DNA from: Synechococcus sp. JA-2-3B'a(2-13)
GTDB taxonomy: Bacteria > Cyanobacteriota > Cyanobacteriia > Thermostichales > Thermostichaceae
NCBI RefSeq assembly: GCF_000013225.1
Contig: NC_007776.1
Location: 1,073,277-1,137,276 of the forward strand
Direction of reading: 5' to 3'
Length of the DNA: 64,000 nt
Position 1 is the stretch's first letter. Every line of letters starts with the position of its first letter. Positions 1 to 12,007 of this stretch are shown piece after piece. A model generated the notes under the pieces. That model did no database searches and was not told where the DNA came from. It saw only the letters and a list, made by a program, of their open reading frames with translations. Both the position numbers and the translations under genes were made by a program.

Positions 1-839
1 CTCCCGCCGCTCGCGCTCTGCTGGGATCCCTGATCGACACCTTCTGGCCGGGGCCCCTAACCTTGGTGCTGCCCAAGTGCCCCACCGTGCCGGATCTGGT
101 AAGCAGCGGGTTGCCTACTGTTGCCCTGCGGGTGCCTGCTCACCCGGTGGCTCAAGCTTTGTTGCAGGCGGTGCAAACCCCTCTGGCTGCCCCCAGTGCC
201 AATCGCTTTGGCCGCATCAGCCCCACCTCAGCCCAGGCCGTCTATGCAGAGTTGGGAGGGCGGATCCCTTACATCTTGGATGGGGGAGAGTGTGCTGTGG
301 GCCTGGAGTCCACCGTGCTAAAGCTCAGCCCCGAGGGGATCCCAACGCTGCTGCGCCCAGGAGGGATCCCACTGGAAGCCCTGGAGGCCCACCTGGGGTT
401 GCCCATCCGGTTGCCCCCAGAACAGGCCCCCAAGGATGGCACAACGGGCCCGCCAGAAGCGCCGGGACGACTGAGCAGCCACTATGCCCCCAGTAAGCCC
501 CTCCGGCTTTTGCCCACCCCTTTTGCCCAGCTTCAGCCCGGCGATTGGCAACAGGTGCAGCACCTGACAACCGGTCATTCCCACCTGGGCATCCTCAGCT
601 TTGCCACGGATCCGCAGGCTCTGCTGAACACCCTCTCCCGCCATTGGCCGGGGATCACTTTCAGTTTGGAGTGTTTGGGTTCGGATCCCAAGGCAGCCGC
701 CCGCGCCCTCTTTGCCAGCCTGCGCCGACTGGATGAGGGAGATGCTACGCTCCTGCTGGCAGAGCCCCCACCCATCTCGACGGGGTTGGGCTATGCGATG
801 ATGGATCGGCTACGCCGGGCCAGCAGCCTTTCGCGTTAG
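1..839 (+). CDS. Threonylcarbamoyladenylate synthase, Sua5/YrdC/YwlC family (5' end outside window)
   Basis: The protein makes threonylcarbamoyl-AMP from threonine, bicarbonate and ATP, the first step of the t6A37 modification of ANN-decoding tRNAs. The frame is open from base 3, so the true start lies upstream. The family motif FWPGPLTLVLP sits just inside the window, followed by the conserved stretch with APSANRFGRISPT and later GLESTV, which belong to the YrdC fold. The region after about base 460 (SSHYAPSKPLRLL onward) matches the extra C-terminal Sua5 domain, so this is the long Sua5 form rather than short TsaC. The last codons and the stop lie inside a small dispersed repeat (831-852), so the C-terminus may have been rewritten by that insertion. 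Confidence 0.9.
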   Translation, partial: PAARALLGSLIDTFWPGPLTLVLPKCPTVPDLVSSGLPTVALRVPAHPVAQALLQAVQTPLAAPSANRFGRISPTSAQAVYAELGGRIPYILDGGECAVGLESTVLKLSPEGIPTLLRPGGIPLEALEAHLGLPIRLPPEQAPKDGTTGPPEAPGRLSSHYAPSKPLRLLPTPFAQLQPGDWQQVQHLTTGHSHLGILSFATDPQALLNTLSRHWPGITFSLECLGSDPKAAARALFASLRRLDEGDATLLLAEPPPISTGLGYAMMDRLRRASSLSR

Positions 840-852
840 CGTCGCTTAGCGA
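831..852 (+). repeat. Small dispersed hairpin repeat at the sua5 3' end
   Basis: The segment folds as two adjacent mini-hairpins: CGC-GTTA-GCG followed by TCGC-TTA-GCGA. It is one member of a repeat family found at least ten times in the window. It supplies the stop codon of the sua5-like gene and ends just before the purE start codon. Confidence 0.6.
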
Positions 853-853
853 T

Positions 854-1393
854 ATGGAACTCTCCCCCCTCGTTGCCATCGTAATGGGTAGCGATTCCGA
901 TTTGCCCACCCTTGCACCTGCCGCCCAGGTGTGTGAGGAGTTTGGGATCCCTTACCAATTGCAGATCCTCAGCGCCCATCGCACTCCCGAGGCGATGGTA
1001 GAGTTTGCCCGCCGCGCCCATACCCAAGGGATCCGCGTCATCATTGCCGGGGCAGGGGGAGCAGCCCATTTGCCGGGGATGGTGGCGTCCCTCACCCCTC
1101 TGCCGGTGATCGGGGTGCCGGTGCTCAGCCCATCCCTGCAGGGGATCGACTCCTTATACTCGATTGTGCAAATGCCCAAAGGGATCCCGGTGGCCACGGT
1201 GGCCATTGGCAACGGCTACAACGCGGGTCTGTTGGCGGTGCAGATCCTAGCCAGTGGGGATCCCGATCTGCTCCGGCGGGTGATCGCCTATCGGGAAAGC
1301 CTAAAACAGGCGGTGCAGGAGAAAAACGACCAGTTGCAAACCCAAGGGTGGAAAGCCTACCTCGACTCTATAAAGCATAAGAGCATAATTTAA
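854..1393 (+). CDS. purE: N5-carboxyaminoimidazole ribonucleotide mutase
   Basis: PurE converts N5-CAIR to CAIR in de novo purine synthesis in the cytoplasm. The N-terminal motif MGSDSD and the SAHRTPE motif with its catalytic histidine are present, followed by the glycine-rich AGAGGAAHLPGM segment. At 179 residues it is slightly longer than typical class I PurE because of a C-terminal tail (QAVQEKNDQLQTQGWKAYLD). The gene begins right after a small dispersed repeat that ends the upstream sua5 gene. No purK is visible nearby. The related LarB protein is encoded at 46160. Confidence 0.95.
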   Translation: MELSPLVAIVMGSDSDLPTLAPAAQVCEEFGIPYQLQILSAHRTPEAMVEFARRAHTQGIRVIIAGAGGAAHLPGMVASLTPLPVIGVPVLSPSLQGIDSLYSIVQMPKGIPVATVAIGNGYNAGLLAVQILASGDPDLLRRVIAYRESLKQAVQEKNDQLQTQGWKAYLDSIKHKSII

Positions 1394-1399
1394 GGAGCG

Positions 1400-2218
1400 T
1401 TGATCTATCTTGCCGCTTGCAAAGGGCCAGATAGGGCCGAGTTTTGGGAGTTGCCATCGGTGAAGCATCAATCGGGTCGCCCTTCTTCCGGCCAGGGATC
1501 CTGGCCAGAATATCTGCAGCGGGTGGGGCGTGGGGCAGTGGAGACGGGATCCCAAGTTGCTCTGTGGATCCTATCGGGGCCGCAGTGGCGGGTTTTGGCT
1601 CTGTCGGCCTTGGCGTTGGCAGGGCTGGCCTTCTGGAATGGGCGGCTGGCGCTCTCTCTGGGGGTGGGCACCTTGGTGATGTTGGGGCTACAGGGGGTGC
1701 GCAGCCCTGAGTTCAACCGCCGCTGGCAGGAGTGGCAAGCTTGGTTTCGGCAGGCGGATCGCTGGCTTTTGCTGGCAATTGGTTCGGGAGCAGCCGCCAC
1801 CTTGGGCACCTACACCCTCATCTCCATCTGGGCAGAATCCACCCAACGCTGGCTGGCCACCGGTGCCATTCTACAGGGATTGGCCACTCTAGCCTTGTTG
1901 TCGCTGCTGTTTGGGGAGTGGCTCAGGGGCCGACAAGAGCGGCAACGGTCTCAATTGGAGCGCGACCTCAGCGACATTGCTTCTCCCGATCCCTTCCGAC
2001 GGCTGGCGGGCGTTCGCCGCTTGCAGAGCTTAATGTCCCACCTGGATCCCGAGCAAACCCGGCTGGCGGTGGATTATCTGCGGTTGGCCCTCGACCAAGA
2101 GACGGTAGCGGTTGTGCGGGAAGCCCTGCTGGAGGCCCTACAGGGATGGGGGATCCTGCGCCGCCTCAACGATTTGACCAATCTCAAACACCCCAGCAGG
2201 GATCCCTCTTCAAACTAA
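1400..2218 (+). CDS. Membrane protein with C-terminal HEAT/armadillo-like segment, function unknown
   Basis: I do not recognise a named family with certainty. Three hydrophobic segments are visible, around residues 52-90, 113-140 and 150-170, followed by a charged cytoplasmic part that includes SDIASPDPFRRLAGVRRLQSLM and resembles a helical ARM/HEAT-type repeat. The frame opens with TTG at 1400, only 6 bases after the purE stop; the AAGGAG sequence is very close to it, so a downstream GTG at 1460 is also possible. Close spacing suggests co-transcription with purE. Confidence 0.7.
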   Translation: MIYLAACKGPDRAEFWELPSVKHQSGRPSSGQGSWPEYLQRVGRGAVETGSQVALWILSGPQWRVLALSALALAGLAFWNGRLALSLGVGTLVMLGLQGVRSPEFNRRWQEWQAWFRQADRWLLLAIGSGAAATLGTYTLISIWAESTQRWLATGAILQGLATLALLSLLFGEWLRGRQERQRSQLERDLSDIASPDPFRRLAGVRRLQSLMSHLDPEQTRLAVDYLRLALDQETVAVVREALLEALQGWGILRRLNDLTNLKHPSRDPSSN

Positions 2219-2307
2219 GATAACGGCTGTCTTGGTCCTCAAGGGTTTGACTGGGATGATAAATTCAGTCCCTTGGGCAATCCGCCAAATAGATTGCTCA
2301 CCTCAGG

Positions 2308-2400
2308 TTTAGCTAAACCGCCGAGAAGCCCCGCGCTGTATGCGTAGCAACCCTGCGGGAAGCTAGCTACAGGGTCGGGAGTATGTTACGCGGCATACCC
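2308..2400 (+). mobile_element. Solo right-end hairpin of an IS200/IS605-type element (relic)
   Basis: The 324-base gap 2219-2542 has no convincing gene. Within it, the stretch reading CAGGTTTAGCTAAACC, then AGAAGCCCCGCGCTGTA, an arm beginning ACAGGGTCGGGAG and the end TATGTT matches in order the segment upstream of the tnpB at 9912 and the tnpB right ends elsewhere in the window. No transposase gene remains, so it is a solo end. It contains a GC-GTA-GC mini-hairpin typical of the small dispersed repeats, apparently inserted in the hairpin loop. The rest of the gap holds a plausible promoter region for the downstream gene (TAGAAT near 2484). Confidence 0.55.
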
Positions 2401-2542
2401 CCTTTCCATCTAGGCTCAGGCTTGTCCCTCTGCCGCCAGCCCTATTGCAAAAAGCTTGCTTGGAGCTGGCCTGCAAGGAAGGCTAGAATCTTTTACTATG
2501 GGTAATCCTCTCCAGCCGCTCCCTTAGCCGCACTGTGCCAGC

Positions 2543-3223
2543 ATGTATACCATTTCCGACTTTGACCGCCTGATCCAGTTTCTCCCGGTGGAGATCCGCC
2601 CTGAAGTGCAGATCGAGATCGGCACCCCCGACCAGTCTCGGGTTGTGCAGCCGTTGTGGCGCTTTCCCTGGCAGAAATACTCTCGCTTCGCCATTGACCT
2701 CAGCCGTTGGCAGAAGCTGAGCCCTGACCAGCAGAAGATCTACTTCTTGCGAGAAGCGGTGATGGCCACAGAGCTGGCTTTGGGGGATAACTGGTCGGCG
2801 TTGTTGCTGTATCCCGCCTTGATCGGGGCCGGCAGCATGGGCATTTTGGTAGAGCTGCAGATGGGAGATAACCTCGGCGTTGGCTTAGCAGCAGGCTTGG
2901 CCGCGTCAGCGGTGTTTCTGTTGCGCAAAGCGGAGAAGGGCCAGAAGGCCCAGGTGGCAGCCGACGAGTTTGCCGTGCGCTATGCCTCCCAGAATGGCTA
3001 CACCTCCGAGCAAGCTGCTGCTATCTTGCTGAGCGCGCTGCAGCAGGTGGCCATGCTGGAAGATCGCGTTAAAAATGACTACGACACCACCATGCGCCGC
3101 CGCAACCTGGAGTTTTTGGCGCAGCGAGGCCTGGGAGCTGGCACCCTGACCATCAACCCCAAGTACCGCAACAAGGGGCAAAGCTCCAGCCCGAATCCTT
3201 TCCAAAACCCTTTCCAGCGCTGA
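2543..3223 (+). CDS. DUF3318 family protein, probable membrane-associated
   Basis: This 226-residue protein has the layout of the cyanobacterial DUF3318 family: an N-terminal soluble part (MYTISDFDRLIQFLPVEIRPEVQIEIGT at the start), two central hydrophobic helices (about residues 88-105 and 108-128), and a helical C-terminal part ending in a polar tail rich in N, P, S and Q. The function of the family is not known to me. It is convergent with the minus-strand ATPase cassette that ends at 3257. Confidence 0.8.
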   Translation: MYTISDFDRLIQFLPVEIRPEVQIEIGTPDQSRVVQPLWRFPWQKYSRFAIDLSRWQKLSPDQQKIYFLREAVMATELALGDNWSALLLYPALIGAGSMGILVELQMGDNLGVGLAAGLAASAVFLLRKAEKGQKAQVAADEFAVRYASQNGYTSEQAAAILLSALQQVAMLEDRVKNDYDTTMRRRNLEFLAQRGLGAGTLTINPKYRNKGQSSSPNPFQNPFQR

Positions 3224-3256
3224 GGCCTCTCAAAGCTAGTTAGGGATTGACTGGGC

Positions 3257-4504
3257 TTATTCTTCGTCCTCTTCCAACTCTGGAAGCTCCTCAGTTGGGG
3301 TAGACTTGATCGCCTCATCTTCTACAATCACAATTTCTGTATCGGGGCTGTAATACCGACGCACATCCCACTCCGTAATCCAGCGGCGAATAATTGACCG
3401 CACAGTGGTTGTGCTGTAGAGCTCAGGAAGCTGTGGCAGCGATGGGCGTACCCAATCGGGATAAGCTTTCTGGTAGAGATCCGCTACCCTATGCCACATG
3501 GATTGAATGTCCTCGCGGGCTTCTAAGCAGGAACAGAGAGGGGTAGCTTGGCTAATAGCCTCCATGCCGGCCTTTACAACTTCCTCAGACATATGCTTCT
3601 GGAGAGCTATCTTAGGTGCTTTCTCCCAATCTCCTTTTTCTTGTAGAATGACCCTCTCGAAATCGCGGGTTACTGCTCCTACGAAAACCAGCGGAGCTTT
3701 CTTTATTTCTTCAGGCAGGGTTGTTGTACCAAACAAGTGCCCAAGAACGCGGTACGACTTGACCCGCTGAAGAAGACTGTACTGGGCAATAAGCTCAATC
3801 TCATCCACCAAAACCACCAAGCCCCCAAACCCTATGGCCCGACATAGCTGGGCACAGAAGGCCAGGCGCTGCCAGTGTAGGCTTTCTGCAGGGGGTAGCT
3901 TGCCAATGGGATAAGCACCTGCCAAGCCGTGATCCCGTAGGCTTCGCCTTACCTCTGAGGACTTCAGAGTGGGCTCACCAGCCCAAAAGCGGACAATGGC
4001 GTCTAGCTTCTCGTCATCGCCTCCTAACCTTTGGTACAGAGCCAAGGTGGCCGGCCACCAGCCTGACCCAAACTGCCACTGGTTAACCCAAAGCTGGAAC
4101 TTCTGGAAAGAAGGCGAGAAAGAAGGCGAGGAGTCCTGTAGCCGGGCTGCCATGCCTTGGATCCCACGCTCAACCATGTCAGGGAGCTCGACCTGGGCAA
4201 GGAGGCGGGGAATCAGGCGATTGGGGTTACCGAGGGGCAACTCTTTGGAGACGACAACTAGGGAGGTGGCAAAATTATTCTTCCTTGCTCGCTCCTGCAG
4301 GGTTAGTAGAAGATGGGACTTGCCTGTCCCAAAATCCCCCTTTATCAGCATTCCTGCAGGGCCTGAACTAGCACCCTTGCACAGCTCTTGAAAACCCTCC
4401 TCAATCTGAGACTGCCAAGAGCCAAGTTCTGCAACTGCGAACCGGTTAGGAACGCCATTTCGTAGGGCTTCAATGGCCCGCCTAGCTGCAATCGCTACAT
4501 TCAT
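3257..4504 (-). CDS. BrxC/BrxD-like P-loop ATPase (DUF2791 type), last gene of a three-gene cassette
   Basis: The protein (415 aa from ATG at 4504) looks like the ATP-binding proteins of BREX-type systems (BrxD, formerly DUF2791). Walker A is GDFGTGKS at residues 56-63 and Walker B is VVLVDEIE at about 230-237. A C-terminal helical domain follows and the tail is very acidic (EELPELEEDEE). The chosen start gives an ATGA overlap with the upstream gene; a start at 4528 is also open but would overlap by 28 bases. Family assignment rests on motif layout. No BREX methylase, PglZ phosphatase or helicase is encoded nearby, so it is not a standard BREX locus. A DNA-linked, possibly defensive role is inference. 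Confidence 0.7.
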   Translation of the reverse strand: MNVAIAARRAIEALRNGVPNRFAVAELGSWQSQIEEGFQELCKGASSGPAGMLIKGDFGTGKSHLLLTLQERARKNNFATSLVVVSKELPLGNPNRLIPRLLAQVELPDMVERGIQGMAARLQDSSPSFSPSFQKFQLWVNQWQFGSGWWPATLALYQRLGGDDEKLDAIVRFWAGEPTLKSSEVRRSLRDHGLAGAYPIGKLPPAESLHWQRLAFCAQLCRAIGFGGLVVLVDEIELIAQYSLLQRVKSYRVLGHLFGTTTLPEEIKKAPLVFVGAVTRDFERVILQEKGDWEKAPKIALQKHMSEEVVKAGMEAISQATPLCSCLEAREDIQSMWHRVADLYQKAYPDWVRPSLPQLPELYSTTTVRSIIRRWITEWDVRRYYSPDTEIVIVEDEAIKSTPTEELPELEEDEE

Positions 4505-5451
4505 AGAAGCTGCACCATAGCTGTGCATGGATTAGGCTTTTGAAGAGAAGAAACCTCATTCTCAATTCGAGTTTGCAAAGCTCGATATCTATGATAAGAC
4601 AGACGCTCAGATTCAATAAACTCTGGAGGAGCTAAGAAAATTAACACAGTTTTTTCTAGTTCACTCTCCGCATCGATAAACTCACGCAAAGTCTCGTAGA
4701 GCTCAAGGATTTGTCGACTGGTAAAGTTAGGGCGTCCACTGGGGGTCCGCTCGTAGTAGTGAAGCAAGCTGACAAGGACTGCTACTAAGCCGGATCGTCG
4801 TGTAAATAGTCTTAAGAAAGAAAGTAGAATCCCTCGAGCATTTGTCCTGTCAATCTTTCGAAAAATAGCCGCTTCACGCACCCGGCTGATAGAGCTCAGC
4901 GTACCTTTAAGCCACTCTTGAATTGCAGAGCATAGACCTTCCAGAGTGCCTGGGCTTTGAAGGGGTTCGTAGACAAGTCGGACTATGGCTTTGCGAAAGT
5001 CAAGGGCTAGTGAGTAATCCAGAAAAATACCTCTCTTAATTTCCCGCTGAAACTCTAGTTTGATCTCACGGGCTTCAATCTGATAGAATTCGGCCAACTG
5101 CTCTAAAGTGCAGTCCTGCAGATCTAGCCTGGGAGGGTATCCAATTTTTTGGAGAATGTTGAAGCGCAGATCTTTGGCAAAAGTCTCCCAATCTACTCTC
5201 TGAGCAAGGGCAAACCAAAGCTGTTCGACTGAATGCAGCTTTAAGCACTCCTCTGTCAAATCAAAAATATGAAAGGAATACTGGTTAAGCTTTTCCAGCA
5301 GCGCTTTCCGCACCCAAGAGTAGGAATCTTTCGGAACAACGGCCAGCTTGACAGTGGCACCACCTTCAGGGATAAAAGAACGCAAGTAGTCTTCTTCCAG
5401 ACAGCGCAGCCACAAATCAGGCTCTAGCCGACCCTGGCCCTCTTCGCTCAT
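4501..5451 (-). CDS. Degenerate BrxC/BrxD-type P-loop protein (pseudo-ATPase), middle gene of the cassette
   Basis: The protein has 316 residues. Its N-terminal FIPEGGATVKLAVVPKD (residues about 26-42) lines up with the start of a BrxD-like nucleotide-binding fold, where a strand after GG..VK leads into the P-loop, but the GxxxxGKS/T loop is replaced by VPKDSYSWV. Later, SGLVAVLVSLLHYY, then the helix YETLREFIDA and the strand VLIFLAPPEF match the region that carries Walker B (DE) and sensor residues in the active family, again without the acidic pair. I infer a catalytically dead partner of the ATPase encoded next. It overlaps both neighbours by 4 bases (ATGA), which implies translational coupling. 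Confidence 0.6.
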   Translation of the reverse strand: MSEEGQGRLEPDLWLRCLEEDYLRSFIPEGGATVKLAVVPKDSYSWVRKALLEKLNQYSFHIFDLTEECLKLHSVEQLWFALAQRVDWETFAKDLRFNILQKIGYPPRLDLQDCTLEQLAEFYQIEAREIKLEFQREIKRGIFLDYSLALDFRKAIVRLVYEPLQSPGTLEGLCSAIQEWLKGTLSSISRVREAAIFRKIDRTNARGILLSFLRLFTRRSGLVAVLVSLLHYYERTPSGRPNFTSRQILELYETLREFIDAESELEKTVLIFLAPPEFIESERLSYHRYRALQTRIENEVSSLQKPNPCTAMVQLL

Positions 5452-6215
5452 AGCTTCTCAAACTCCAAAAGATAGTAGGCGTGCTCCACCCCAGCTTCGT
5501 CTCGAATGCGGTAGTAGCGACCCGAGCGCGTGCCTGTAGACGCGGAGAAGATCAAGCGGTAGCCCTCCACATGGTTGGTGCCATTTCGATCCAAGAGGTA
5601 AAGATGCCGCGTAAACTCCACTTCGGTGTAGTCTGGGTTGTTGAGGTGGAGCACCTCGAAGACATCGCGAGCAGGTACTTGAAGAGAACGAGGCAGCTCT
5701 GCGCTTGACTTTCTCAAGTAACCCGCTGCAATTTTTGCCGCTTTCCAGATGCGTTCAAGAACTACCTCTGGATTAGTTTCTTTCCCTTTGGTCATTCTTG
5801 CTCGGAGAATCTTCTCTGCAATGGCACTGGGCCGTTGAGAGCGTAGAAGCTTGCGATCTATGCGCACTCCCTCCCTGGAAAAGCGCACTAAGGCGGGGAA
5901 AGCTACAAAGACATGGGGGCTTTCCGTAGGCAGCCAAGGCTGGCCGACTCGTTCTCCTACCTCGCTAGCAAGTTCTTCAAGAGAAGTTCTCTCCAAAACC
6001 TGCTGGGTTTGTTCAAGGGCTTGTCTTACCGTCTCCACCTGGGAAAGAGCCTCGCTGAGGACAGAGCTACAGCCTTGTAGCTGGCGGCTCAGGGCTGGAA
6101 CTTGCCCTCCTTTACAAGCGACTTGGGCTTTCCCTGCGGTCTCCTTTGCTTTCTTAGTCAGGGCAAATAGCTTGCCTAGCTCGTCGTCAAGAGTCTTGAA
6201 GAGGGCTTCAATCAT
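5448..6215 (-). CDS. Coiled-coil protein, first gene of the ATPase cassette, function unknown
   Basis: I do not recognise this protein. From ATG at 6215 it has 255 residues: a helical, probably coiled-coil N-terminal half (residues about 1-100, rich in E, Q, K, L), a basic middle (FSREGVRIDRKLLRSQRPSAIAEK), and a C-terminal alpha/beta part ending in YYLLEFEKL. The frame stays open upstream to 6341, but that would overlap the asparaginase gene by 50 bases, so I prefer 6215; the sequence before it (AAGAAAAGG) is a weak ribosome site. The ATGA overlap with the next gene supports a single functional unit of three proteins. Confidence 0.6.
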   Translation of the reverse strand: MIEALFKTLDDELGKLFALTKKAKETAGKAQVACKGGQVPALSRQLQGCSSVLSEALSQVETVRQALEQTQQVLERTSLEELASEVGERVGQPWLPTESPHVFVAFPALVRFSREGVRIDRKLLRSQRPSAIAEKILRARMTKGKETNPEVVLERIWKAAKIAAGYLRKSSAELPRSLQVPARDVFEVLHLNNPDYTEVEFTRHLYLLDRNGTNHVEGYRLIFSASTGTRSGRYYRIRDEAGVEHAYYLLEFEKL

Positions 6216-6291
6216 TAGTTTTTGGGCCTTTTCTTCGAGAAATCTAGCATCACCAAGAGTTTGGGTGCAAGGCCTTCCCACCTCCGGCTCT

Positions 6292-7245
6292 TCAAGGCAT
6301 ACGCAGTTCCCCTTCCACCTCAAGGCGGGTGTAAGGGCCAATGGAGAGGAAGCGCTCCCCTAGCATTTCAGCAGCAGCAGGCTGAATCCAGCCCATACGC
6401 TGCAGCAGGTGCAAAGCCAGGGCATACTTGGCCCGGGCGGCTCCATCCTGGACCTTGATGGCCAGGCCCATGCCTTCCCCCACCCGGCCAATGCACTGGA
6501 TCCCTTCAGCACCCGATTTGCTCACCAGATCCCCTTGAGTGGCCCGCATCAATTCCGTGTCGAAACACCCCTGTCCAGCCACCATCTCCGGGTGATGGGT
6601 CATGGCCCGTGCTACCGATTCCAAGTCGGGCCGCTCGCCGGCGGTCAGTTGGGCGAATAGAGAAGCCAGGTGGTTCAGTTGCAATTGGTAGGTGGGCACC
6701 CCACAGTCATCCCGCGCAAACAAAAACTCCTCCGAGGGCATTTGCAGCAAATCCGCCAACTTGGCCCGCACCAGCGCTTGCACCGGATGCTGCCGCTGGG
6801 CATAGTCCGACAAGGTCCAGTTTTGGGCGCGGCTGGCCACGAGCATGCCAGCATGTTTGCCGGAGCAGTTGTGGCACAGGGGGCTGGGCTTGCCGGGTGG
6901 GGTGGGGCAGACCAGCAAATCGGGAGACAGATCGGCCCGCCACAGTATGCTGAACACCTGCCGCGCATGAGCCGTGGTGCCCTGATGGGATCCGCACATG
7001 ATGGCAATATCTTTCTCGCTGAGGCGGTAGCGCTCGCGGATGCCGGTGGAGAGCATGGCCAGTGCTTGGAAAGGTTTGAGGGCAGAACGGGCAAAAACAG
7101 GGGTGGTGCTGTTGCCGGCCATGGCCAGAGAACGCCCGCGGCTATCGGCCACGACAGCTTGGCAATGATGGATAGATTCGGTCAACCCCTCCCGCAAGAC
7201 ATGGATTAAGAGTTCAGGGGCGGTGGAACGATTCTCAAATGACAT
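6292..7245 (-). CDS. L-asparaginase, asparaginase II (PF06089, rhizobial-type) family
   Basis: The protein hydrolyses asparagine to aspartate and ammonia. It belongs by sequence character to the family with the motifs RSALKPFQ, CGSHQGT near residue 85, and CHNCSGKHAGML near residue 122, which are typical of thermolabile/rhizobial-type asparaginases unrelated to the E. coli type II enzyme. The 317-residue length fits the family. It lies upstream of the ATPase cassette on the same strand with a 76-base gap, so read-through into the cassette is possible. The gene itself carries GGATCC sites like the host background, unlike the cassette. Confidence 0.85.
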   Translation of the reverse strand: MSFENRSTAPELLIHVLREGLTESIHHCQAVVADSRGRSLAMAGNSTTPVFARSALKPFQALAMLSTGIRERYRLSEKDIAIMCGSHQGTTAHARQVFSILWRADLSPDLLVCPTPPGKPSPLCHNCSGKHAGMLVASRAQNWTLSDYAQRQHPVQALVRAKLADLLQMPSEEFLFARDDCGVPTYQLQLNHLASLFAQLTAGERPDLESVARAMTHHPEMVAGQGCFDTELMRATQGDLVSKSGAEGIQCIGRVGEGMGLAIKVQDGAARAKYALALHLLQRMGWIQPAAAEMLGERFLSIGPYTRLEVEGELRMP

Positions 7246-7387
7246 GAAAACCTGGGAAAGGGCTGACGAAGCTGGGAAAGAGGATGTGTACTCTTCAAAT
7301 CATACGCGCAGATCCTACGCGAGAAGTTGGCGGGATCCCCTAAAGTAGCAAAATGGAACCCTTCCGCTCGGATCCCTGACCTCTGCC

Positions 7388-8182
7388 ATGTCCTCCAATC
7401 CCCTGGTGTTTTTGGTCTGTCACGGCAGCCGGGATCCCGATTATCAGCAGGCTTTGGCAGATTTGTTGGCCCGGGTGCAGCAGCAGCTGGCTCCCCAGCC
7501 GGTGGAGCTGGCCCAGTTGGAAGGTCAGCCTCTCACCCTGGCCGAACAGATTCAAGGACGGCTGGCAGCTTGGCTGGGCGCAGGCCGATCTCCCGATCAA
7601 GTGGTGCTGCTGTCGCTGTTTATGGGCGAGGGATCCCATGTGGAAGAGGATTTACCGGCTGCGGTGAAGCAGGTTCAAGCTCGCTGGCCGCGCCTGCCCA
7701 TCCGGTTAACACCCCCCATTGGCCAGCACCCGGCCCTCCTGGATCTGTTGGTGGCTCGCATTCTGGCTCCACAGCCCTCTTGCTCTGCAACGCTCAGGCA
7801 ATCCGGCGAACGGGCAGATGCCTGGATTGTGCTTGGCCATGGCAGCCGTCTGCCGGGGTTTGCCGCCCAGCTCCAAGCCGGGATCCAAACTGTGCAACGG
7901 CGCTTGCCCGAGATCCCCTTGCATGTGGCTTTTGCTGCCCAGTCCCCCACCTTAGAAGCGGTCGTGATCCATTGCTTGCGCCTTAGCCAGTGCCGTCTAC
8001 GGGTGCTGCCGTTTTTTCTCTTTCCAGGCGGTCTGCTGCGCGCCCTACAAGAACAGGCTCAGCGATTACAGCGGGAATGGCCTCTGCTCCAAATCCAGGT
8101 GGAGCCGCCCCTCTGGCGGGATCCTCAACTGATGCAGGCCATTGTGGAGACACTCCAGGCTTTTAGCCCGGCGCTGGAATAG
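7388..8182 (+). CDS. Sirohydrochlorin chelatase (CbiX/SirB family)
   Basis: The enzyme inserts a metal (iron for siroheme, cobalt for B12) into sirohydrochlorin. Two homologous halves are visible, each opening with the CbiX signature: VFLVCHGSRDP near the N-terminus and WIVLGHGSRLPGF near residue 138, the histidines being the metal/tetrapyrrole ligands of the family. FMGEGSHVEEDLP is the second active-site region of the first half. It is followed directly by a uroporphyrinogen methyltransferase gene, giving two consecutive pathway steps. The original start ATG at 7388 follows a short AT-rich region. Confidence 0.9.
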   Translation: MSSNPLVFLVCHGSRDPDYQQALADLLARVQQQLAPQPVELAQLEGQPLTLAEQIQGRLAAWLGAGRSPDQVVLLSLFMGEGSHVEEDLPAAVKQVQARWPRLPIRLTPPIGQHPALLDLLVARILAPQPSCSATLRQSGERADAWIVLGHGSRLPGFAAQLQAGIQTVQRRLPEIPLHVAFAAQSPTLEAVVIHCLRLSQCRLRVLPFFLFPGGLLRALQEQAQRLQREWPLLQIQVEPPLWRDPQLMQAIVETLQAFSPALE

Positions 8183-8225
8183 CCGAATCTTTCCCGTTCC
8201 CTCAAAATGGATATTTCCAACAGCA

Positions 8226-9029
8226 ATGACGCGACCAGGACTTGAGATGGGCAAAGTGTATTTGGTGGGGGCAGGGCCTGGGGATCCAGGGCTGCTGACG
8301 GTGAAGGGAAAGGCGCTACTCGCCCACGCGGATGTGGTCATCTACGATGCTCTGGTGGGATCCTCCATCCTGGAGCTGATCCCGCCGACGGCAGAACGGA
8401 TCTATGCTGGCAAACACTGCGGCGCTCACACCTTGCCCCAGGAGCAGATCACAGCCTTGCTGATGGAGAAAGCTCGGACGGCAGCCGTGGTGGTGCGGCT
8501 CAAAGGGGGGGATCCCTTCATCTTTGGGCGAGGCGGCGAGGAGATGTTGGCTCTGGTGCAGGCCGGGATCCCAGTGGAGGTGGTGCCGGGAATTACGGCG
8601 GGCATTGCCGCCAGCGCCTATGCCGGGATCCCTCTCACCCATCGCGACCTCAGCTCCTCAGTTGCTTTTGTTACCGGACATGAGGCGGCAGGGAAATACC
8701 GCCCTCAGGTCAATTGGCGGGCTTTGGCCGGGGCGGTGGAAACCCTGGTGATCTACATGGGCATGCACAACCTCAGCCACATTGCCGCTGAATTGTTGGC
8801 CGGAGGGAAAGCTCCCGACACCCCGGTTGCCCTGATCCGCTGGGGCACCACCCCTGAGCAAGAGATTCATCTGCTCCGCCTGCAGACTCTGGCTGGGCAG
8901 CCCTCGCCCGTAGCACCGCCTTCAATTGTTGTGGTGGGAGCGGTGGTCAGCCTGGCCAGCTTGTTGCCCACTTTGCGTCCGCCAGTCTCGTATTGCTCCG
9001 CAGCGCTTGCGCAACCGGAATCTCCATGA
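8226..9029 (+). CDS. cobA: Uroporphyrinogen-III C-methyltransferase (SUMT)
   Basis: SUMT makes precorrin-2 from uroporphyrinogen III using two S-adenosylmethionines, feeding siroheme for nitrite and sulfite reductases, and B12. The glycine-rich N-terminal motif VYLVGAGPGDPGLLTVKG, the GGDPFIFGRGGEE loop, the VVPGITAG segment and the GMHNL segment are all present. ATG at 8226 and ATG at 8247 are both plausible starts; the longer open frame into sirB is unlikely to be used. The stop overlaps the start of the next gene as ATGA (9026-9029). Confidence 0.92.
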   Translation: MTRPGLEMGKVYLVGAGPGDPGLLTVKGKALLAHADVVIYDALVGSSILELIPPTAERIYAGKHCGAHTLPQEQITALLMEKARTAAVVVRLKGGDPFIFGRGGEEMLALVQAGIPVEVVPGITAGIAASAYAGIPLTHRDLSSSVAFVTGHEAAGKYRPQVNWRALAGAVETLVIYMGMHNLSHIAAELLAGGKAPDTPVALIRWGTTPEQEIHLLRLQTLAGQPSPVAPPSIVVVGAVVSLASLLPTLRPPVSYCSAALAQPESP

Positions 9030-9814
9030 ACGCCTTCTTTCGCAAGTTGGGTGCCCTCTTCTCCGCCTACTACGCCTACATGCTGGAGTACCGGGCCGAG
9101 CTGATCCTGTGGGTGTTGGCCGGATCCCTGCCCCTGATCATGATGGGGGTGTGGAGCGAGGCAGCCCGCTCAGGAGACTTCTCGCTGTCTGCTCTGGAGT
9201 TCATCCGCTACTTTCTGGCGGTGTTCCTGGTGCGCCAGTTCACCATCGTCTGGGTCATCTGGGACTTTGAGCGAGAGGTGGTCGAAGGCAAATTATCTCC
9301 TCGCCTGTTGCAGCCTCTGGATCCCGCTTGGCACCATGTGGCCAGCCACCTGATGGAGCGCTTGGCCCGTCTCCCCTTTACCCTGGTTTTAATCGCCCTT
9401 TTCTTCGTCCTCTACCCCCGTGCCTTTTGGATCCCCTCTTGGGCCCAGGCGGGGCTGGGATCCCTGGCCATTCTCCTGGCTTTTGCCCTGCGCTTTCTCA
9501 TGCAGTACACCCTGGCGCTGCTGGCCTTTTGGGTGGAACGGGTGACGGCCTTGGAGCAGTTCCATTTTTTGGTGTACTTGTTTTTCTCGGGGGTGATCGC
9601 TCCTCTGGAGGTGTTCCCACCACCCGTGCGCCAGGTCTTGGCCTGGACACCCTTCCCCTACCTGGTGCATTTTCCCGCCAGCCTCTGGGCAGGGATCCCG
9701 GTGGACATTCTGCGCGGTTTTGGCCTGGGCCTGGCCTGGACGGGCCTGCTCTGGCTGGCTAACCGCTGGTTGTGGCGCAAAGGCTTGCAACAGTACTCGG
9801 GAATGGGAGCTTAG
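9026..9814 (+). CDS. ABC-2 type transporter permease
   Basis: This 262-residue integral membrane protein has six hydrophobic segments (around residues 25-45, 60-80, 115-135, 145-165, 175-200 and 225-245) and the family features of ABC-2 permeases (FEREVVEGKLSPRLLQPLDPAW after the second segment; ALEQFHFLVYLFFSGVIAPLEVFP near the end). Such permeases work with a separate ATPase, which is not in this window. It starts within the stop of cobA (ATGA), suggesting translational coupling although no functional link to siroheme is evident. The substrate is unknown. Confidence 0.85.
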   Translation: MNAFFRKLGALFSAYYAYMLEYRAELILWVLAGSLPLIMMGVWSEAARSGDFSLSALEFIRYFLAVFLVRQFTIVWVIWDFEREVVEGKLSPRLLQPLDPAWHHVASHLMERLARLPFTLVLIALFFVLYPRAFWIPSWAQAGLGSLAILLAFALRFLMQYTLALLAFWVERVTALEQFHFLVYLFFSGVIAPLEVFPPPVRQVLAWTPFPYLVHFPASLWAGIPVDILRGFGLGLAWTGLLWLANRWLWRKGLQQYSGMGA

Positions 9815-9821
9815 AGGGCCA

Positions 9822-9885
9822 GGTTCAGCTAGAAATCGCAGGAGCCCCGCACTGTACCCGTAGGGTCAGTGCCGGGAGGAATGCG
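9822..9885 (+). mobile_element. Solo IS605-type right-end hairpin directly upstream of tnpB
   Basis: The stretch starting CAGGTTCAGCT and continuing GGAGCCCCGCACTGTA, a short CCCG loop, then a GGGTCAGTGCCGGGAGG arm, matches the solo right end at 2308-2400. In IS605-type elements this hairpin normally follows tnpB, but here it lies only about 25 bases before the tnpB start. It is therefore either the remnant of an older element into which the present one jumped, or a co-opted leader. Confidence 0.5.
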
Positions 9886-9911
9886 CTTTAATGAAGTACA
9901 ATGAACTTATG

Positions 9912-11150
9912 AGCCAAGTCCTGACCGTCTCCTGTAAGCTCAAGGCGTCCCAGTCGCAAGCCGCCAAATTGGACGCGACGATGGAGGCTTTTGGCCAAGC
10001 CTTGAACTGGGTCAACCAGAACACGCCGGAGAAGATCGTCAACGCGGTCAAACTGCAATCCCTTTGCTACTACGAGATTCGAGCCCGGTTCGGCTTGTCC
10101 AGTAACTTGGCAAGGACTACGTCCCGCTTACGCGACCAACAGGTGTGCAGACGGGTAGCGGGTTCCCGCAAAGTGGCGAGACAGCGCAACCGTCCGGTTA
10201 AAGAGTTCAAGCGTAGGTTCGTTACCTACGACGCACGTATCTTTTCATTCCGCGAGAAAGACTGGACGGTGTCGCTGACCACGGTTGAAGGGAGAGAACG
10301 CTTTGAGCTAGCCATTGGTAACTACCAGAGGGGAATGCTGGCTGGCTCTAACCCCAAATCGGCCACCCTAGTCCAGCAGAAGGATGGCTCCTACTACATC
10401 CAGATTTGCGTAGAGAAAAAACCACCCAAGCAACAAGATACCGACAAGGTGATCGGGGTGGACTTGGGAAGGACAGATATTGCCCATACGTCAGACGGGG
10501 ACAACTGGAATGGACAGCAGTTGAACAGAGTCCGCGACCACTACTCCCGGTTGAGGGCGGCACTCCAACGCAAAGCCAGTAAGGGCACACGCAGTTCGCG
10601 GCGCAGATGCAGAGAACTGTTGCAACGGCTGTCTGGCAAGGAGAGACGCTTTCAGTCGCGTCAGCGTTGCGTAGCAAAAACGTGGGTCAATCATCGCATC
10701 TCCAAAGCTATTGTCTCTAGGGCAAAAGCTACCAACAGCGCTATTGCTCTGGAAGACCTGACAGGGATCCGGGAAAGGGTCAATCAACAGCCACGCAGCA
10801 AAGCCGAGCGGCGTAGGACCAACAGTTGGGCGTTCTACCAACTACGTCAATTTCTGGAATACAAGGCGAGGGTTGCAGGGGTTTCTCTGATTCTTGTGCC
10901 GCCCGCCTACACGTCGCAGACCTGCCACAAGTGTTTGCACATCCATCCCGACCCTGCGCAATCCTACCGCAGTGGCAAGTCGTTCAAGTGTGGGCACTGT
11001 GGATGGGAAGGGGATGCGGATTTGAATGGTGCGAATGTGATTGCGCTCTTGGGGGCTGCCGTAAACCAGCCTAGAGGTCCGGGCTTGTTTTGTTCTCTGG
11101 TAGAGCAGAACAGGCTCAGGGCTACTGAAAGCCCGCTCCGTACCGCTTAG
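9912..11150 (+). CDS. tnpB: TnpB, IS200/IS605-type RNA-guided nuclease homologue
   Basis: Full-length TnpB of 412 residues if the second ATG is used (9891 is an alternative). The RuvC-like motifs are in order: D184 in GVDLGRTD, E281 in ALEDL, and the C-terminal aspartate around 370 in GDADLNGAN. The zinc ribbon CHKC...CGHC is at about 338-363. TnpB proteins are RNA-guided DNA endonucleases of IS605-type transposons, using an omegaRNA from the 3' end of the element. No TnpA is present, so it is not self-mobile by itself. A 21-base dispersed repeat (10657-10677) adds residues SRQRCVA between RuvC I and II; whether the nuclease is still active is uncertain. Confidence 0.88.
   Translation, partial: SQVLTVSCKLKASQSQAAKLDATMEAFGQALNWVNQNTPEKIVNAVKLQSLCYYEIRARFGLSSNLARTTSRLRDQQVCRRVAGSRKVARQRNRPVKEFKRRFVTYDARIFSFREKDWTVSLTTVEGRERFELAIGNYQRGMLAGSNPKSATLVQQKDGSYYIQICVEKKPPKQQDTDKVIGVDLGRTDIAHTSDGDNWNGQQLNRVRDHYSRLRAALQRKASKGTRSSRRRCRELLQRLSGKERRFQSRQRCVAKTWVNHRISKAIVSRAKATNSAIALEDLTGIRERVNQQPRSKAERRRTNSWAFYQLRQFLEYKARVAGVSLILVPPAYTSQTCHKCLHIHPDPAQSYRSGKSFKCGHCGWEGDADLNGANVIALLGAAVNQPRGPGLFCSLVEQNRLRATESPLRTA
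10657..10677 (+). repeat. Small dispersed hairpin repeat inserted in frame in tnpB
   Basis: This copy has CGC-GTCA-GCG followed by TTGC-GTA-GCAA (extending to the bases just outside). It is nearly the reverse complement of the copy at 50511-50532. It encodes SRQRCVA, which interrupts the usual SGKERRFQ...NHRISK continuity of TnpB proteins. Confidence 0.6.
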
Positions 11151-11176
11151 CGGTCGGAGCCGGGTAGTTTACCTTT
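11110..11176 (+). mobile_element. Right end / candidate omegaRNA 3' region of the tnpB element
   Basis: From CAGGCTCAGG through AAGCCCGCTCCGTA, a loop with ACCGC-TTA-GCGGT, and the arm GGAGCCGGGTAGTTT, the sequence parallels the solo right ends at 2308 and 9822. In characterised TnpB systems this region ends the omegaRNA scaffold, and the bases directly after the element act as guide; here that would be the sequence from about 11177. This follows family knowledge and is not proven. Confidence 0.5.
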
Positions 11177-11317
11177 CAACCAGGCCACCCTTGAAACCAC
11201 TATTATGGGTCAAGGCACCCCAGCCAAATGACGAATCCTGTCCGTCTCCCTAAAATAGCGACAGATAACAGGTGAATAGCGCTTTACCCTTTTCCCTAAC
11301 AGCCTCCTCGAGTCCTC

Positions 11318-12007
11318 ATGAAGCGTGTACTGGTCGTAGATGACGATCCCCTCTCCCTGAAGGTGCTGAGCCGCCACCTGACTCAGCATGGCTATCGGGT
11401 TTGTACAGGCGCTTCGGGTGTGGAAGGATTGCGTCTGTTTGCCCAAGAGCAGCCGGATGTGGTGGTTTCAGATGTGGTGATGCCGGAAATGGACGGCTTT
11501 GAGTTTTGCCGACAACTGCGCCAACAGCGCGGCGGCGAGCTCGTCCCCTTCATTTTTCTCTCTTCGCGGGGAGAGATCGATGACCGAGTTCAGGGCTATG
11601 AGCGGGGGGCGGATGACTACATCATCAAGCCCTTTGAACCCCTGGAACTGGTGGCCAAAATCGAGGCCCAGATTGAACGCTCCCGCCGCACCCAATCGGA
11701 AATTTTGCGGCTAATCCAACAGCAGTCCCAGCCAAAACCCGAAGCGGACCCCCGCCCCACCCCACCCGAATTGCCCCTGACCCCTGCCGAAGAGCGGGTC
11801 TTTCGGGAAGTCATTCGCGGCTTCACCAACAAGCAAATCGGCGAGAAGCTGTTCATCAGCCCGCGCACCGTGCAAACTCACCTGACCAACATCCTCAGCA
11901 AGCTTTCTTTGGAAAATCGCTCGCAACTGGTGCGTTTTGCCTACGAACGGGGCTACACCGCCGAAGAGGAGCCGGGCCAGAAGGGATCCCTTTCAGGCCA
12001 GGTGTAG
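11318..12007 (+). CDS. Response regulator, receiver plus LuxR/NarL-type HTH
   Basis: The N-terminal receiver domain (residues 1-120) has the acidic pocket VVDDDP, the phospho-acceptor D52 in VVSDVVMP, and the conserved lysine in IIKPFEP. A proline-rich linker (about 150-165) joins a LuxR-type DNA-binding domain with LTPAEERVFREVIRGFTNKQIGEKL and the recognition helix region SPRTVQTHLTNILSKL. The domain order resembles the Ycf29/NarL type of cyanobacterial regulators. No sensor kinase lies nearby. The 3' end overlaps the convergent sulfiredoxin gene by 15 bases. Confidence 0.9.
   Translation: MKRVLVVDDDPLSLKVLSRHLTQHGYRVCTGASGVEGLRLFAQEQPDVVVSDVVMPEMDGFEFCRQLRQQRGGELVPFIFLSSRGEIDDRVQGYERGADDYIIKPFEPLELVAKIEAQIERSRRTQSEILRLIQQQSQPKPEADPRPTPPELPLTPAEERVFREVIRGFTNKQIGEKLFISPRTVQTHLTNILSKLSLENRSQLVRFAYERGYTAEEEPGQKGSLSGQV

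What the first reader, a model, noticed from the sequence alone, without database searches (positions are those of the whole stretch)
3257..6215. Three-gene cassette: coiled-coil protein, pseudo-ATPase and BrxD-like ATPase with ATGA coupling
Seen: all three genes are linked by exact 4-base ATGA overlaps (5448-5451; 4501-4504). The last encodes an intact P-loop ATPase (GDFGTGKS, VVLVDEIE). The middle one keeps the flanking pattern of the same fold (FIPEGGATVKL...; YETLREFIDA; VLIFLAPPEF) but has lost both Walker motifs. Family knowledge: BrxC/BrxD/DUF2791 ATPases occur in BREX and TerB/helicase-type conflict loci. Inference: an active/inactive ATPase heteromer plus a coiled-coil subunit, without the methylase, PglZ or helicase of BREX, may be a compact defence or DNA-handling system not yet described.
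Basis: partly seen in the sequence, partly recalled or inferred. Interest (0 to 1): 0.75.

Follow-up and report, generated by a model that had tools for sequence, protein, structure and literature searches.

The report
Mobile three-gene cassette with split ATPase
A small cassette of three genes, one a working molecular motor, one a motor-like protein that has lost its fuel-binding site, and one of an unnamed family, turns up unchanged in order in scattered, distantly related bacteria and is probably an undescribed relative of known anti-virus systems.

Summary
Three genes on the minus strand (A 5448-6215, B 4501-5451, C 3257-4504) are joined by exact ATGA overlaps. C is an intact BrxC/BrxD-family P-loop ATPase. 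B is the same fold with both Walker motifs gone. The A-B-C order recurs in about 30 other loci in Cyanobacteriota, Bacillota, Atribacterota and Coprothermobacterota, beside unrelated neighbours and with no constant fourth gene. At this site it is a discrete 3.06-kb insert, absent from four congeners.

In every relative outside the two Synechococcus genomes, B has an intact Walker A, so the pseudo-ATPase is a derived state of this lineage. It is not decay: dN/dS of B is 0.10-0.19. B keeps an arginine motif (YxALxxR, R295) found in all B proteins and in Shango SngB but not conserved in C. C keeps the ATP site. My reading is one AAA+ active site split over two subunits, with A (coiled-coil hairpin plus winged-helix-like end, no Pfam family) as adaptor. 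It is neither BREX nor Shango: PglZ and a BrxHI-type helicase were not found in this genome, and A is unrelated to the TerB-type proteins tested. A defence role is inferred, not shown.

The parts
5448..6215 (-). Gene A (255 aa): N-terminal coiled-coil hairpin plus winged-helix-like C-terminal part; undescribed family
   Evidence: AF2 pLDDT 86, pTM 0.67; homologous to A of relatives, hhalign E 1.5e-6; no Pfam family in any of 28 members
5988..6212 (-). A residues 2-76: two-helix coiled-coil hairpin
   Evidence: secondary structure
5475..5771 (-). A residues 149-247: helix-strand-helix-helix-strand-strand order, winged-helix-like
   Evidence: secondary structure order; no confident fold match
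4501..5451 (-). Gene B (316 aa): BrxC/BrxD-family P-loop fold without Walker A and B (pseudo-ATPase)
5314..5337 (-). B residues 39-46: degenerate Walker A region (relatives G..GTGKTH)
4768..4788 (-). B residues 222-228: degenerate Walker B strand (D227 replaced by V in both Synechococcus)
4567..4569 (-). B Arg295 in the YxALxxR motif between sensor strand and strand 5: candidate trans-acting arginine finger, retained
3257..4504 (-). Gene C (415 aa): intact BrxC/BrxD-family ATPase
4316..4339 (-). C Walker A GDFGTGKS
3794..3817 (-). C Walker B VVLVDEIE
5448..5451 (-). ATGA overlap A stop / B start
4501..4504 (-). ATGA overlap B stop / C start
3225..6288 (.). Insert carrying the trio: window 3224 and 6289 are contiguous in the closest sister genome
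   Evidence: (L062, and with a short spacer in L064, L065, L066)

Best explanation
A-B-C encodes one accessory, horizontally spread AAA+ complex of the BrxC/BrxD (ORC/Cdc6-like) superfamily, in which the catalytic unit is shared between two subunits. C carries the ATP-binding site. B, here without an ATP site, carries the arginine that completes C's site in trans, so C should hydrolyse ATP only next to B. A is the adaptor: its coiled coil tethers it to the ring or to another A, and its winged-helix-like end contacts DNA or a partner. The most likely role is anti-invader defence: the complex assembles on foreign DNA and blocks it or remodels a host replication protein, since no nuclease or dedicated helicase is encoded. 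Shown: homology, fold of B, conserved trio, insert/empty site, constraint, loss of the Walker motifs, retention of R295. Inferred: heteromer, arginine finger, DNA contact, defence.
For: C hits BrxC_BrxD 1.3e-14, and PADLOC BrxD 5e-11 and SngB 1e-4. B is homologous to intact ATPases (E 1.4e-20) and models as a P-loop fold, with BrxC and ORC structures among the best though weak matches. The trio order is invariant in about 30 loci of four phyla, with no constant fourth gene. There is an empty site in four congeners, and only 13 of 390 Cyanobacteriia genomes have a full-length C. dN/dS for A, B and C is 0.10-0.23. Walker A is intact in B of all 41 non-Synechococcus locus records examined, some of them duplicates. 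YxALxxR is present in 29/29 trio B, 3/3 helicase-linked B and SngB, and is not conserved in C; no column between C residues 247 and 369 has Arg in 60% or more of the relatives. C keeps G56 G59 G61 K62 D234 E235. Kin systems with one such ATPase are defence systems: Shango (PMC10250203) and BREX type 2 (PMC12839542).
Against: No complex was modelled; the finger role of R295 rests on its position between strands 4 and 5 and on conservation. The fold matches for A are not significant. Many relatives sit beside housekeeping genes rather than defence genes. No effector is recognisable. Only two closely related sequences carry the pseudo-ATPase, and both B and C of that lineage are very divergent.
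Confidence: 0.5

Rival explanations
1. The trio is an accessory chromosome-maintenance or replication-restart factor (ORC/Cdc6-like loader for a host helicase), not a defence system.
For: BrxD-type ATPases are classed as ORC/Cdc6 AAA+ and proposed to load a helicase (PMC12839542). The trio has no nuclease. Several copies sit between housekeeping genes such as ispG and here between DUF3318 and asparaginase.
Against: Very patchy presence, absence in congeners and decayed copies in several lineages (L055, L056, L058, L083) suit a dispensable accessory better than a maintenance factor.
Confidence: 0.25
2. The cassette in Synechococcus is a decaying remnant: B lost its motifs by relaxed selection and the complex is dead.
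For: B lost Walker A and B; A of the sister genome G004 has an in-frame TAA about 30 codons in; the stems are long.
Against: dN/dS of B 0.10-0.19, similar to C; the segment FIPEGGATVKLAVVP at the former P-loop is identical in both genomes; C keeps every catalytic residue; all three window frames are open with ATGA junctions intact.
Confidence: 0.12
3. It is a reduced BREX type 2 or Shango system whose other genes were lost or lie elsewhere.
For: Same ATPase superfamily: B vs SngB E 2.8e-12, C vs SngB 3.3e-8; BrxD hits.
Against: No BrxHI-type helicase and no PglZ in G000 or G004; A unrelated to SngA or TerB_C proteins; NCBIfam BrxD equivalog score 40.9 against a cut-off of 350; trio-only organisation is the rule in all lineages.
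Confidence: 0.08

Closest known systems
BrxD ATPase of type 2 BREX (PF10923 BrxC_BrxD; NCBIfam NF033438)
   Same: Same ATPase family for B and C; ORC/Cdc6-type AAA+ with an arginine finger reported near strand 5 (PMC12839542)
   Different: Two paralogues instead of one, one of them ATP-site-less here; no BrxHI partner, PglZ or BrxC-size protein; score far below the BrxD equivalog cut-off
Shango (SngA TerB, SngB ATPase, SngC helicase)
   Same: Three genes; SngB matches both B and C and carries the same YxALxxR motif; patchy and mobile
   Different: No helicase; adaptor A is not related to SngA or to the TerB_C protein tested; two ATPases instead of one
Helicase-linked four-gene cassette in cyanobacteria (L025, L026, L102)
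   Same: Homologous A (E 2.6e-11), B and C in the same order
   Different: Adds a BrxHI/SngC-like helicase directly after C; both ATPases have Walker motifs; no published description found
Clamp-loader delta-prime and other AAA+ pseudo-ATPase subunits (own knowledge)
   Same: Works like: a subunit that lost its own ATP site but donates an arginine to a neighbour
   Different: Not homologous beyond the AAA+ fold; analogy only

Membership tests
BrxC_BrxD ATPase superfamily (PF10923) | Profile match over the curated cut-off, C | tested here: met
   54.4 bits against 22.2
BrxC_BrxD ATPase superfamily (PF10923) | Profile match over the curated cut-off, B | tested here: inconclusive
   21.1 bits against 22.2 directly; relatives of B well over it (63.7 and 179.3 bits) and B homologous to them, E 1.4e-20
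BREX type 2 | BrxD equivalog score | tested here: not met
   40.9 bits against 350; relatives at most about 121
BREX type 2 | PglZ present | tested here: not met
   None in G000 or G004; controls rang
BREX type 2 | BrxHI helicase present | tested here: not met
   No match at E 1e-10 in G000 or G004 to a cyanobacterial BrxHI-like helicase used as query
BREX type 2 | PglX methylase and PglW | not tested
   Not searched genome-wide; no gene of that size next to the trio in 1-12000
Shango | SngB-type ATPase | tested here: met
   Homologous, but as two paralogues
Shango | TerB-domain SngA | tested here: not met
   A vs SngA E 0.084, vs TerB_C protein E 0.39; genome search for TerB_N gave no hit but its controls did not ring
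Shango | SngC helicase | tested here: not met
   None linked and none in G000 with a BrxHI/SngC-like query
Split-site AAA+ pair (works-like) | One subunit with ATP site, the other with trans arginine | tested here: inconclusive
   Sequence pattern fits; biochemistry and complex structure not testable here
Anti-phage defence system | Protection shown by experiment | not testable with these tools
   -
Anti-phage defence system | Enrichment next to defence genes | tested here: inconclusive
   A few loci beside CRISPR-Cas I-B, MTase II, SNF2 helicase; no statistical control

The most novel reading that the evidence does not exclude
A previously undescribed defence system, built from a new adaptor family (A) and two BrxD-like AAA+ paralogues without helicase or nuclease, in which the ATP site and its activating arginine have been divided between two proteins, the Synechococcus copy being the end state.
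Probability: 0.45. Interest if true: 0.75.

Novelty: new variant of a known kind. Interest (0 to 1): 0.6.

Why it matters
BrxD in BREX and SngB in Shango are AAA+ proteins whose role is unknown; both come with a helicase. A stand-alone trio shows that this ATPase family occurs without a linked helicase, methylase or nuclease in several phyla, and gives a minimal three-protein complex to study. The Synechococcus copy separates ATP binding (C) from the candidate finger (B) by nature, so the mechanism can be tested with two point mutations.

Tried and rejected
Single-protein scan of genome contigs with C found nothing; a profile of B was needed. Viral and phage collections hold no relative, PHROGs none; the only plasmid hits to B are Shango SngB. 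A as a TerB or TerB_C protein: rejected. An unlinked helicase partner of BrxHI type in trio genomes: not found in G000, G004, G260, G023 or G266, only weak in G012. Fold searches for A in PDB and BFVD gave no significant match. Literature searches for DUF2791/PF10923 gave nothing on the trio. A fourth constant gene: none; the downstream gene shared by some Leptolyngbyaceae loci is an ABC-F type ATPase followed by phosphoglycerate mutase, i.e. ordinary neighbours. No clear target-site duplication at the insert ends.

Full report
What is there. The window lies in a complete 3,046,682-base Synechococcus-type cyanobacterial genome (the size is that of strain JA-2-3B'a, and the 2,932,766-base congener G004 that of JA-3-3Ab, from my own knowledge). 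Three minus-strand genes, A (5448-6215), B (4501-5451) and C (3257-4504), overlap by exactly four bases, ATGA, at both junctions. C is a P-loop ATPase of the BrxC_BrxD family (E 1.3e-14), with weaker hits to BrxD and Shango SngB. B shows the same family at 1.7e-4 over its C-terminal half. A has no family.

B is a genuine pseudo-ATPase. Compared as a profile with the middle proteins of other trios, B aligns over residues 8-313 at E 1.4e-20. In the 29-row alignment, G39, G42, the following Gly, K44 and H46 of the Walker A region, and D227 of Walker B, are replaced in both Synechococcus sequences. In contrast C retains G56, G59, G61, K62, H64, D234, E235 and E237. The AlphaFold model of B (pLDDT 86, pTM 0.85) is a P-loop-type alpha/beta core with a helical insert. 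Its best solved-structure match is a BrxC dimer, with several AAA+ and ORC complexes further down, none with E below 1e-3.

The trio is a conserved unit. Searches of 386 phylum genomes with B and with C hit the same loci, apart from one weak extra hit for C. A profile scan of the GTDB contigs gave 25 locus records from Cyanobacteriota, Bacillota, Atribacterota, Coprothermobacterota and unplaced bacteria. In each of these where the contig reaches, A, B and C stand in this order on one strand. A of the window is homologous to A of the others by profile comparison (E 1.5e-6) and belongs to a family with no Pfam entry in any of 28 members. No fourth gene is constant. Neighbours range from ispG and an ABC-F ATPase to CRISPR-Cas I-B, a type II methylase and an SNF2 helicase of defence type.

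It is an accessory insert. In the closest sister genome the bases at window 3224 and 6289 are contiguous, and three further congeners also lack the trio at that place. In G004 the trio sits at the same site. Its synonymous divergence between the two carriers (NG86 about 1.0-1.5) is about twice that of the flanking genes (0.50-0.59), which suggests older or separately exchanged alleles, though faster local rates are not excluded. A full-length C occurs in 13 of 390 Cyanobacteriia genomes.

The pseudo-ATPase state is derived and constrained. Walker A is intact in B of all 41 non-Synechococcus locus records checked, some of which are duplicates of one another, and which include helicase-linked relatives. 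Therefore loss on the Synechococcus stem is the parsimonious reading. dN/dS between the two Synechococcus copies is 0.10-0.19 for B, 0.14-0.23 for C and 0.14-0.18 for A. The trees place these copies on very long stems, so their exact sister group is unresolved.

How it may work. All 29 trio B proteins, the three helicase-linked B proteins and SngB share the motif YxALxxR (R295 in the window) between the sensor strand and strand 5. The C proteins have no conserved counterpart: no column between C residues 247 and 369 has Arg in 60% or more of the relatives. In BrxD an arginine finger has been placed at the base of strand 5 (PMC12839542). I infer that B donates this arginine to C's ATP site. In the relatives B's own ATP site would have no conserved finger facing it from C, which may explain why its loss could be tolerated. 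This is inference from sequence; no complex was modelled. A is modelled as a coiled-coil hairpin followed by a region with the strand/helix order of a winged helix, without a confident structural match.

What it is not. PglZ and a BrxHI-type helicase were not found in G000 or G004. The BrxD equivalog cut-off is missed by far. A is not related to SngA or to a TerB_C adaptor. Hence neither BREX nor Shango, but kin of their ATPase. A four-gene version with homologous A, B and C plus a BrxHI/SngC-like helicase exists in other cyanobacteria and links the trio to those systems.

Verdict. The active/inactive pairing is real but confined to this lineage. Defence is the most likely role, unproven.

Noticed in passing
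L025:7036-12445, L026:7882-10451, L102:5345-12017: Four-gene cyanobacterial cassette: homologous A, two BrxC_BrxD ATPases and a BrxHI/SngC-like helicase (seen complete in L025 and L102). In L026 the C gene is shortened to a 156-aa frame; in L102 a 388-aa reading frame on the other strand lies between A and B.
   Followed up: partly
L104:6816-11782 and L106:8784-13357: BrxD-like ATPase plus helicase loci in cyanobacteria; in L104 preceded by a coiled-coil TerB_C protein, a Shango-like arrangement.
   Followed up: partly
L010:4538: In the sister genome G004, gene A has an in-frame TAA about 30 codons after its ATG; the rest of A is conserved and could restart at GTG 4583.
   Followed up: partly
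L055:4840-9444, L056:2618-3873, L058:7001-8309, L083: Decayed trios: ISL3 transposase between A and B (L055), split C (L056), B and C truncated around a deletion (L058, Sporomusa ovata), stop inside C (L083).
   Followed up: partly
window 9891-11150: IS605 OrfB/TnpB-type protein (Cas12f1-like TNB domain) near the trio.
   Followed up: no
L060:370-9175: In one uncultured bacterium the trio is directly followed by type I-B cas genes (cas8b, cas7b, cas3).
   Followed up: no
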